DNA of 54,131 nt from Sulfuricaulis sp. GTDB taxonomy: Bacteria; Pseudomonadota; Gammaproteobacteria; Acidiferrobacterales; Sulfurifustaceae. Of this stretch, positions 36,861 through 37,349 are shown in pieces. Under the pieces are notes generated by a model, which was given only the letters and a program-made list of their open reading frames with translations, was not told the origin of the DNA and made no database searches. How positions within the stretch are numbered: position 1 is the stretch's first letter; each line of letters opens with the position of its first letter. The position numbers were made by a program, and so were the translations under genes. Location: the NCBI GenBank assembly GCA_024654125.1, contig JANLIC010000223.1:1-54131 (forward strand). The letters are read 5' to 3'.

Positions 36861-36961
36861 GGGGTCGCCCTGAATTTCGAGGAGACGACATGAAGGTCAA
36901 GCATGTAGACGTCGCGTAGATGCTCTCGTGGACGCGGGTTCGATTCCCGCCGGCTCCACCA
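36861..36961 (+). ncRNA. tmRNA-like RNA lacking the tag reading frame
   Basis: The 3' part has a T-arm GCGGG-TTCGATT-CCCGC (36934-36950), then CGGCTCC, A and an encoded CCA (36959-36961). GGGGTCG (36861-36867) pairs with CGGCTCC over seven positions, including G3-U70, the alanine identity element. A73 is present. The 5' side continues with CTGAATTTCGAGG, similar to the D-loop region of tmRNAs (UGGxUUCGAC). Between the two halves there is only a 30-base hairpin (36884-36913) instead of the usual ~250 bases with pseudoknots and tag codons. It looks like a stand-alone tRNA-like domain of tmRNA that could be charged with alanine. A relic or an att-site copy are the alternatives. Confidence 0.6.
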
Positions 36962-37010
36962 AGCAAGCGTTCGGGCAGTAAAACCTCGATATCCGAAAGG
37001 ACGAGACGTG

Positions 37011-37349
37011 ATGGACAAGACACTGACAGTGAAGCAGGCGGCGCGGGCGGGCAGGTGCTCAGTCGGAACGGTATCCAAGCTGTGCAGGGAAGGCAAGCTC
37101 AAGGCAACAAAGATCAACGGCGACTGGCGCATCGCTCACACACGCGAAGAGGTTGCCGCCATCGTCGAGAAGATTGCCCCGCATCACGGCTACAAGAAGC
37201 GGGGGAACGGCCGCACCTCAAAGCGCGGGAAGATGGTCATCGCTCCGCTCCTTCAGTGGTTGTCACTGGACAGCGCGACGCGCACCACGCTGCTCCAGTT
37301 GGCCAACAAGTTCTCGGCCAGCGACCTCAAGTTGCTGATGACCCTGTAG
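37011..37349 (+). CDS. Excisionase/MerR-type helix-turn-helix protein
   Basis: 112 aa from ATG 37011 (or GTG 37008, which has the better Shine-Dalgarno spacing). TVKQAARAGRCSVGTVSKLC and the following EGKLKATKINGDWRI form the winged helix-turn-helix of the excisionase/HTH_17 family. The C-terminal half is helical and may oligomerise. It probably binds DNA as a regulator. It directly follows the tmRNA-like RNA. Confidence 0.75.
   Translation: MDKTLTVKQAARAGRCSVGTVSKLCREGKLKATKINGDWRIAHTREEVAAIVEKIAPHHGYKKRGNGRTSKRGKMVIAPLLQWLSLDSATRTTLLQLANKFSASDLKLLMTL

What the first reader, a model, noticed from the sequence alone, without database searches (positions are those of the whole stretch)
36861..36961. 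Minimal tmRNA-like RNA: tRNA-like domain with alanine identity but no tag
The acceptor, G3-U70, A73, T-arm and encoded CCA are intact, and the 5' UUCGA D-loop-like region fits tmRNA. The mRNA-like domain is replaced by a 30-base hairpin. It could be charged with alanine but has no reading frame to resume translation. It may rescue or block ribosomes, act as an amino acid donor, or be a relic.
Basis: partly seen in the sequence, partly recalled or inferred. Interest (0 to 1): 0.8.

Follow-up and report, generated by a model that had tools for sequence, protein, structure and literature searches.

The report
Phage tmRNA stripped of its tag
A virus of bacteria carries a cut-down version of the bacterial ribosome-rescue RNA that still looks able to carry alanine but has lost the part that tags broken proteins; one such phage RNA was known before, and searches here show that tRNA-sized ones are common in phages and probably interfere with the host's rescue system.

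Summary
Window 36861-36961(+) is hit end to end by Rfam tmRNA (RF00023, 58.7 bits, cut-off 47, E 1.7e-20). Acceptor stem with G3-U70, T-arm, A73 and encoded CCA are intact, and the upper tmRNA helix H2 with its 3-nt bulge is kept. A 9-nt loop replaces the pseudoknots and tag. It is not an ordinary tRNA (tRNA-sized RF00023 matches in 60 related genomes reach at most 36.8 bits in the rows shown) and not an integration scar (5' half present, no integrase found). The contig is a tailed phage binned in a bacterial MAG that has its own ssrA and smpB.

The kind is known: mycobacteriophage DS6A has a "TLD only" tmRNA, and such RNAs inhibit tmRNA in E. coli. New here: IMG/VR scans gave 69 distinct tRNA-sized TLD-only tmRNAs, all with G3-U70 though that pair was not required, with strong covariation; at least two lie unannotated in cultured Streptomyces phages. 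The window RNA is outside that class by model score, keeps more of H2, and departs at two D-loop positions, so a decaying relic is not excluded. Best reading: an alanine-chargeable decoy of host trans-translation (about 0.45).

The parts
36861..36961 (+). TLD-plus-H2 minimal tmRNA (whole element, CCA included)
   Evidence: RF00023 58.7 bits over model positions 1-374
36861..36867 (+). acceptor stem, 5' strand GGGGUCG (G3 of the G3-U70 pair at 36863)
   Evidence: pairs 7/7 with 36951-36957
36868..36880 (+). linker and D-loop-like CCCUGAAU-UUCGA (GA in place of the usual GG)
   Evidence: sequence; comparison with the mini class
36884..36892 (+). H2 5' strand GACG-ACAUG
   Evidence: constrained fold; full-length host ssrA has GGGGCAUGCC here
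36893..36901 (+). 9-nt loop AAGGUCAAG where pseudoknots and tag would be
   Evidence: constrained fold; CM alignment with 267 model positions missing
36902..36913 (+). H2 3' strand CAUGU-[AGA bulge]-CGUC, the best conserved part of the insert
   Evidence: same motif (AAGCATGTAGA / ACGCATGTAGA) in full-length tmRNAs of related genomes
36934..36950 (+). T-arm, 5-bp stem and UUCGAUU loop
   Evidence: sequence and fold
36951..36957 (+). acceptor stem, 3' strand CGGCUCC (U70 at 36955)
36958..36961 (+). discriminator A73 and encoded CCA
36890..36919 (+). 9-codon frame MKVKHVDVA* inside H2, preceded by GAGGAG (36879-36884); probably incidental
37008..37349 (+). downstream neighbour: helix-turn-helix protein (Pfam HTH_17; PHROG excisionase-like)

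Best explanation
It is a phage-borne tmRNA that has lost its pseudoknot ring and tag but kept the tRNA-like domain and the upper helix H2. Made during infection, it would be trimmed like a tRNA, charged with alanine by host AlaRS, and bound by host SmpB and EF-Tu. It would then compete with host tmRNA, as a decoy that ties up SmpB or enters stalled ribosomes and cannot continue, so lowering trans-translation (tagging and decay of phage or host products). Shown: sequence, tmRNA homology, intact alanine identity elements, missing tag domain, host smpB and ssrA in the same MAG, no phage SmpB match in the same MAG search. Inferred: expression, charging, SmpB binding, inhibition.
For: RF00023 match far above cut-off and above tRNA-sized matches in related genomes. 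Acceptor, G3-U70, A73, T-arm, CCA intact. UUCGA kept (its role in SmpB contact is recalled). Only SmpB match in the MAG, which includes the window contig, is on contig C42 beside ssrA, and 0 of 50 mini-bearing virus records have SmpB, so the RNA would depend on host SmpB. A DS6A-like TLD-only molecule strongly inhibits tmRNA, charged or not, perhaps by titrating SmpB (passage of PMC4131195; passage of PMC11915505). The same architecture recurs in 69 distinct phage-type RNAs with G3-U70 in 69 of 69 and strong covariation, so TLD-only RNAs are kept by selection in phages generally. No integrase among the 40 window proteins scanned, so it is not an att scar. It sits alone in a 230-nt gap (median same-strand gap among my own gene nt).
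Against: No homologue of this exact form found, so selection on it cannot be tested: 0 of 10 portal relatives; of 50 terminase relatives one has a full-length tmRNA and none a mini. Two departures at near-invariant D-loop positions. It scores 31.3 bits on the mini-class model, where members score 49.8 or more. Fold not more stable than shuffles and not the H2 form. No sigma-70-like promoter nearby. No expression data. If SmpB titration alone were the job, invariance of G3-U70 in the wider class would be unexplained, since uncharged molecules reportedly inhibit too.
Confidence: 0.45

Rival explanations
1. Relic: the phage once carried a full-length tmRNA and an internal deletion removed ring and tag; what remains is decaying.
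For: Two near-invariant D-loop positions changed; no homologue of the mini form; a terminase relative (63% identity) carries a full-length tmRNA with tag ANDNEPFALPQAA; the insert still shows the tmRNA H2 3' motif.
Against: All 12 acceptor and T-stem pairs, A73 and CCA are intact; H2 still pairs although its 5' strand differs from full-length tmRNAs; phage genomes shed useless DNA (general knowledge).
Confidence: 0.27
2. Tag-free rescue: charged mini-RNA enters stalled ribosomes with SmpB, takes over the nascent chain, and the peptidyl-RNA is then freed by drop-off and hydrolysis, so ribosomes are recycled without tagging.
For: G3-U70 in 69 of 69 and A73 in 60 of 60 class members argue that charging matters; mitochondrial tmRNAs also lack a tag frame and are thought still to help (PMC11915505); one mini-bearing phage also has a GGQ-bearing RF-1-domain protein.
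Against: No known step frees such a ribosome; only 1 of 50 mini-bearing virus records has an RF-1 domain protein; similar molecules inhibited tmRNA in E. coli.
Confidence: 0.14
3. Hidden short tag: the 9-codon frame in H2 (MKVKHVDVA, UAG stop) is translated, from its own ATG or after a template switch.
For: GAGGAG-N5-ATG plus a closed frame of at least 8 codons in only 10 of 1070 windows of the contig; tags of two codons exist (PMC11915505).
Against: The AUG is part of the conserved H2 helix, so not independent; noticed after the fact; no LAA-type end; H2 must melt.
Confidence: 0.04
4. Assembly artefact: a full-length phage tmRNA lost its middle in assembly.
For: Nawrocki et al. report large internal tmRNA deletions in certain older MAGs (PMC11915505); the contig comes from a MAG.
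Against: Deletion ends leave a perfectly closed upper H2 with its bulge.
Confidence: 0.06
5. attP fragment of host ssrA used for integration.
For: Common in phages: Marshawn carries a bare 3' end next to its integrase (no RF00023 match).
Against: 5' half present (158 of 100,000 shuffles); no integrase among 40 proteins; 3' end not identical to the related host tmRNAs compared.
Confidence: 0.03

Closest known systems
Mycobacteriophage DS6A tmRNA ('TLD only'; Mao et al. 2009, not held, known through passages of PMC4131195 and PMC11915505)
   Same: Phage-borne, tmRNA tRNA-like domain without tag; a similar molecule inhibits tmRNA in E. coli
   Different: DS6A is described as little more than the TLD; the window RNA keeps the upper H2 with its bulge. 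DS6A's sequence was not in the collection, so no direct comparison was made
Tag-less mitochondrial tmRNAs of jakobids and others (Jacob et al. 2004, seen only as a citation; passage of PMC11915505)
   Same: tmRNA without tag reading frame
   Different: Organellar, mostly permuted two-piece genes; the window gene is standard order, one piece, in a phage
Full-length phage tmRNAs, one-piece or permuted (e.g. Phabba, Bajun, SM1, XacN1; RF00023/RF04321 matches)
   Same: tmRNA genes carried by phages
   Different: They keep the tmRNA middle; the window RNA has lost ring and tag
79-nt TLD-only class described here (L018-L218 loci; pSt2308, LuckySocke)
   Same: Alanine-identity tRNA-like domain with one hairpin arm, no tag, phage-borne
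   Different: Shorter arm without the CAUGUAGA motif; canonical GG-UUCGAC D-loop; the window RNA scores below the class on its model

Membership tests
tmRNA (RF00023, full sense) | Covariance model score above the curated cut-off | tested here: met
   58.7 vs 47 bits
tmRNA (RF00023, full sense) | Acceptor stem with G3-U70, A73, T-arm | tested here: met
tmRNA (RF00023, full sense) | D-loop GG-UUCGAC | tested here: not met
   GA and UUCGAG; UUCGA itself kept
tmRNA (RF00023, full sense) | Tag reading frame and pseudoknots | tested here: not met
   9-nt loop between the H2 strands; 267 model positions missing. An incidental 9-codon frame overlaps H2
tmRNA (RF00023, full sense) | Charging, SmpB binding, tagging | not testable with these tools
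   needs bench work
TLD-only phage tmRNA (DS6A kind) | Phage-borne tRNA-like domain of tmRNA without tag | tested here: met
TLD-only phage tmRNA (DS6A kind) | Inhibits host tmRNA | not testable with these tools
   only reported for a DS6A-like molecule
   31.3 bits; members 49.8 and above, next sources 36.9
tRNA-Ala | Cloverleaf with D-stem and anticodon arm | tested here: not met
   ARAGORN none; no RF00005 hit
ssrA-derived attachment site | Only the 3' part of ssrA, next to an integrase | tested here: not met
   5' half present; no integrase among 40 scanned proteins

The most novel reading that the evidence does not exclude
Phages have repeatedly turned tmRNA into tRNA-sized, alanine-charged, tag-less RNAs, one widespread class of about 79 nt plus separately derived forms such as this TLD+H2 one. 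These act in charged form on stalled ribosomes, taking over or blocking the first half of trans-translation so that broken chains are not tagged during infection. They are a common RNA-based phage countermeasure that ARAGORN does not report.
Probability: 0.25. Interest if true: 0.85.

Novelty: new variant of a known kind. Interest (0 to 1): 0.58.

Why it matters
If right, phages interfere with ribosome rescue using an RNA of about 80-100 nt, and host SmpB or the non-stop ribosome is a phage target. The published tmRNA database counts 9 'standard, no CDS' sequences among 97,179 (PMC11915505), whereas two capped pattern scans here gave 69 distinct phage-type ones. The question becomes testable at once: Streptomyces phage LuckySocke, whose record names S. 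lividans as host, carries one in its tRNA array that its record does not annotate.

Tried and rejected
Relatives of the window phage with the same element: DNA polymerase gave none in viral contigs; 10 portal relatives and 50 of the 80 terminase relatives searched whole showed no mini tmRNA. A pattern for window-like TLD+H2 RNAs (TTCGA..ATGTAGA..GGAC) gave 15 viral stretches. Nine of them are one repeated sequence type (L013, L023, L030, L061, L064, L065, L067, L068, L077) that I take for ssrA 3' ends beside prophages; I judged none of the 15 a mini by eye (L235 printed empty), without a model search of all of them. The first MAFFT alignment (A1, 54 of 60 mini sequences) misaligned 5' ends and was dropped; A2 (17) had a misplaced gap. 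A3 holds 14 gap-free 79-mers picked by hand out of 30 of that length, so its covariation is for chosen, well-behaved members. In one search one 110-nt row (L028) was dropped as spurious. Stenotrophomonas, Pseudomonas, Brevundimonas, Tunturi_4 and similar blastn hits that were fetched proved permuted or full-length tmRNAs, not minis; Microbacterium phages Armstrong and Quenya have G3-U70 tRNA-like RNAs of another shape (36.9 and 34.3 bits), left open. DS6A could not be fetched by the two accession numbers I recalled.

Full report
WHAT IS THERE. Rfam's tmRNA model matches window 36861-36961(+) from its first to its last position with 267 positions missing in the middle (58.7 bits, cut-off 47, E 1.7e-20). 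It is the only RNA family hit in the window. ARAGORN reports nothing. By direct reading and a fold with the tRNA-like domain enforced: acceptor GGGGUCG/CGGCUCC, 7 of 7 pairs with G3-U70; linker and UUCGA; H2 helix GACG-ACAUG/CAUGU with a 3-nt AGA bulge before CGUC; 9-nt loop; GGAC; T-arm; A73; CCA. The full-length ssrA of the same MAG has GGGGCAUGCC on the 5' side, and related genomes have AAGCAUGUAGA or ACGCAUGUAGA on the 3' side. So the insert corresponds to the top of H2, closed by a short loop, and the pseudoknot ring and tag are gone. The name H2 and the roles of D-loop bases are recalled, not taken from a call.

MORE THAN CHANCE. In 60 related genomes the RF00023 matches of tRNA size stay at or below 36.8 bits in the rows shown, below the cut-off; among the matches above the cut-off in those rows, only the window one is a mini (rows beyond the list were not shown, and Infernal's stricter filters were used). 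With the 3' half held fixed, 158 of 100,000 dinucleotide shuffles of the 120 nt upstream gave a 7/7 acceptor partner with TTCGA at 12-18 nt. Results against: unconstrained folding gives z -0.17 and a different arm; the TLD+H2 fold is -28.6 against -34.6 kcal/mol, and the lower part of H2 does not pair cleanly in it.

WHERE IT SITS. The contig is a tailed phage: portal, terminase subunits, head and tail proteins on the minus strand, and DNA polymerase, exonuclease, helicase and thymidylate synthase on the plus strand, with a primase (minus strand) at the boundary. No integrase was recognised among 40 proteins given to PHROGs; other called or possible small ORFs were not scanned. The RNA lies alone in a 230-nt gap (median same-strand gap among my own gene nt) between a 61-aa ORF and an HTH_17 gene. 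No sigma-70-like promoter was found nearby. The MAG has its own smpB and ssrA on contig C42; the only SmpB match in the MAG is that one, and the window contig is part of the MAG.

RELATIVES OF THE PHAGE. DNA polymerase resembles Yuavirus-type enzymes at about 27%. Portal relatives (10, best segments 51-56%) carry no tmRNA. Of 50 of the 80 terminase relatives searched whole, one (63% identity) has a full-length tmRNA with tag ANDNEPFALPQAA; three others have only weak matches below the cut-off. So no close homologue of the mini form is known to me, and selection on it cannot be tested directly.

A WIDER CLASS. Among loci fetched for the second pattern, 84 of 111 hold a tRNA-like domain with at least 6 of 7 acceptor pairs and G3-U70. 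Counting distinct RNAs from both scans with six acceptor pairs required and the third left free, 69 of 69 have G3-U70; pairs 4-6 take five types each. A73 is present in 60 of 60 after near-duplicates are collapsed, but those 60 had been filtered for G3-U70. GG precedes UUCGA in 69 of 70 and C follows it in 69 of 70. On 14 hand-picked gap-free 79-mers the structure (acceptor, H2-like arm, inner hairpin, T-arm) pairs in 96.3% of cells, covariation score 0.711 against 0.176 shuffled and at most 0.125 slid. The search pattern fixed UUCGA, GGAC and part of the T-arm, so their constancy is by construction; acceptor and arm were free. A covariance model (R1) run on the window plus 84 other loci scores clear members at 49.8 bits or more, then drops to 36.9. 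The window RNA scores 31.3, in the range of non-members, so it is a separate form.

WHO CARRIES THEM. A complete scan of 84,980 prokaryote genomes with a slightly stricter pattern gave 24 stretches. By acceptor pairing five are true minis: an Acidimicrobiales MAG, Prochlorococcus AG-409-P03, a cyanobacterial MAG, a Mycobacterium MAG and Parafrankia EUN1f. The Prochlorococcus contig has the same length (130,604) as the IMG/VR viral contig of L208, and the two minis have the same sequence. Cultured phages: Streptomyces phages pSt2308 and LuckySocke have full-length matches (RF00023 61.0 and 57.1 bits) inside tRNA arrays, with no feature annotated there; GiJojo shows the same blastn match but was not fetched. 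In 14 of 59 mini-bearing loci a tRNA lies within 500 nt (counted by eye against the positions; loci differ in length). ARAGORN called none of the 59 as a mini; in L156 and L182 it reported longer tmRNAs overlapping the mini, which may be why annotation misses them. SmpB is absent from 50 of 50 mini-bearing virus records; an RF-1-domain protein is present in 1 of 50 (nine further mini-bearing loci were not searched, and many records are fragments).

LITERATURE. TLD-only phage tmRNA is a known kind. PMC4131195 (passages read) lists mycobacteriophage DS6A as 'TLD only' and states that a similar molecule, chargeable or not, strongly inhibits tmRNA, perhaps by titrating SmpB, citing Mao et al. 2009 (not held). 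PMC11915505 (parts 1-3 of 5 read, plus two passages) counts 9 'standard, no CDS' sequences among 97,179, repeats the DS6A result, and warns of internal deletions in older MAGs. PMC9004378 (passages) surveyed phage tmRNAs with ARAGORN. PMC10865867, PMC11090510 and PMC8012679 were read in passages only. Full-text searches of the open PMC library showed no other account of tag-less phage tmRNAs in their listings; most subscription papers are not in that library.

HOW IT MOST LIKELY WORKS. The decoy reading rests on intact alanine identity, host SmpB, and the published inhibition by a DS6A-like molecule. The invariance of G3-U70 in the wider class is more than SmpB titration needs, since uncharged molecules reportedly inhibit too; it suggests that the charged form matters, either to carry the decoy into the ribosome or for tag-free transfer of the nascent chain. 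For the window RNA itself the two D-loop departures pull towards a relic. I therefore put decoy 0.45, relic 0.27, tag-free rescue 0.14, with small shares for artefact, hidden tag and att fragment.

VERDICT. The single element is a new variant of a known, rarely reported kind. The class it points to is larger than published, makes a concrete prediction in cultured phages, and is the main reason for the score.

Noticed in passing
L095 (Tunturiibacter phage Tunturi_4, PP885687.1) 1118-1465 and 1470-1879: A permuted tmRNA (RF04321 79.2 bits, not annotated) lies directly downstream of a phage RF-1-domain protein with a GGQ motif (ArfB-like): a possible phage ribosome-rescue pair.
   Followed up: partly
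L074 2604-3013 and 2509-2590 (-): A GOLLD RNA (RF02032, 173 bits) sits next to a TLD-only tmRNA in the same viral contig.
   Followed up: no
L186 / G100 (146,347-base viral contig), RF-1 domain at 129073-129366: One virus carries both a 69-nt mini tmRNA (the shortest found) and a 179-aa GGQ-bearing RF-1-domain frame about 10 kb apart.
   Followed up: partly
L222 2438-2527 and L223 2439-2527 (Microbacterium phages Armstrong and Quenya): Unannotated G3-U70 tRNA-like RNAs without the UUCGAC D-loop, beside tRNA genes; 36.9 and 34.3 bits on the mini model, no Rfam match above cut-off at that place.
   Followed up: no
L221 2854-2910; L042 5916-6012: Pistol ribozymes in phage loci that hold tmRNA genes (Gordonia phage GMA2 full-length tmRNA; L042 mini).
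   Followed up: no
L045, L060, L144, L156: A longer TLD-only form (91-95 nt to A73) with a long GC-rich arm, in viral contigs.
   Followed up: no
G000 contig C42, 7592-8297: The MAG's ssrA is cut by the contig end just downstream of smpB, so whether anything is integrated there cannot be seen.
   Followed up: no
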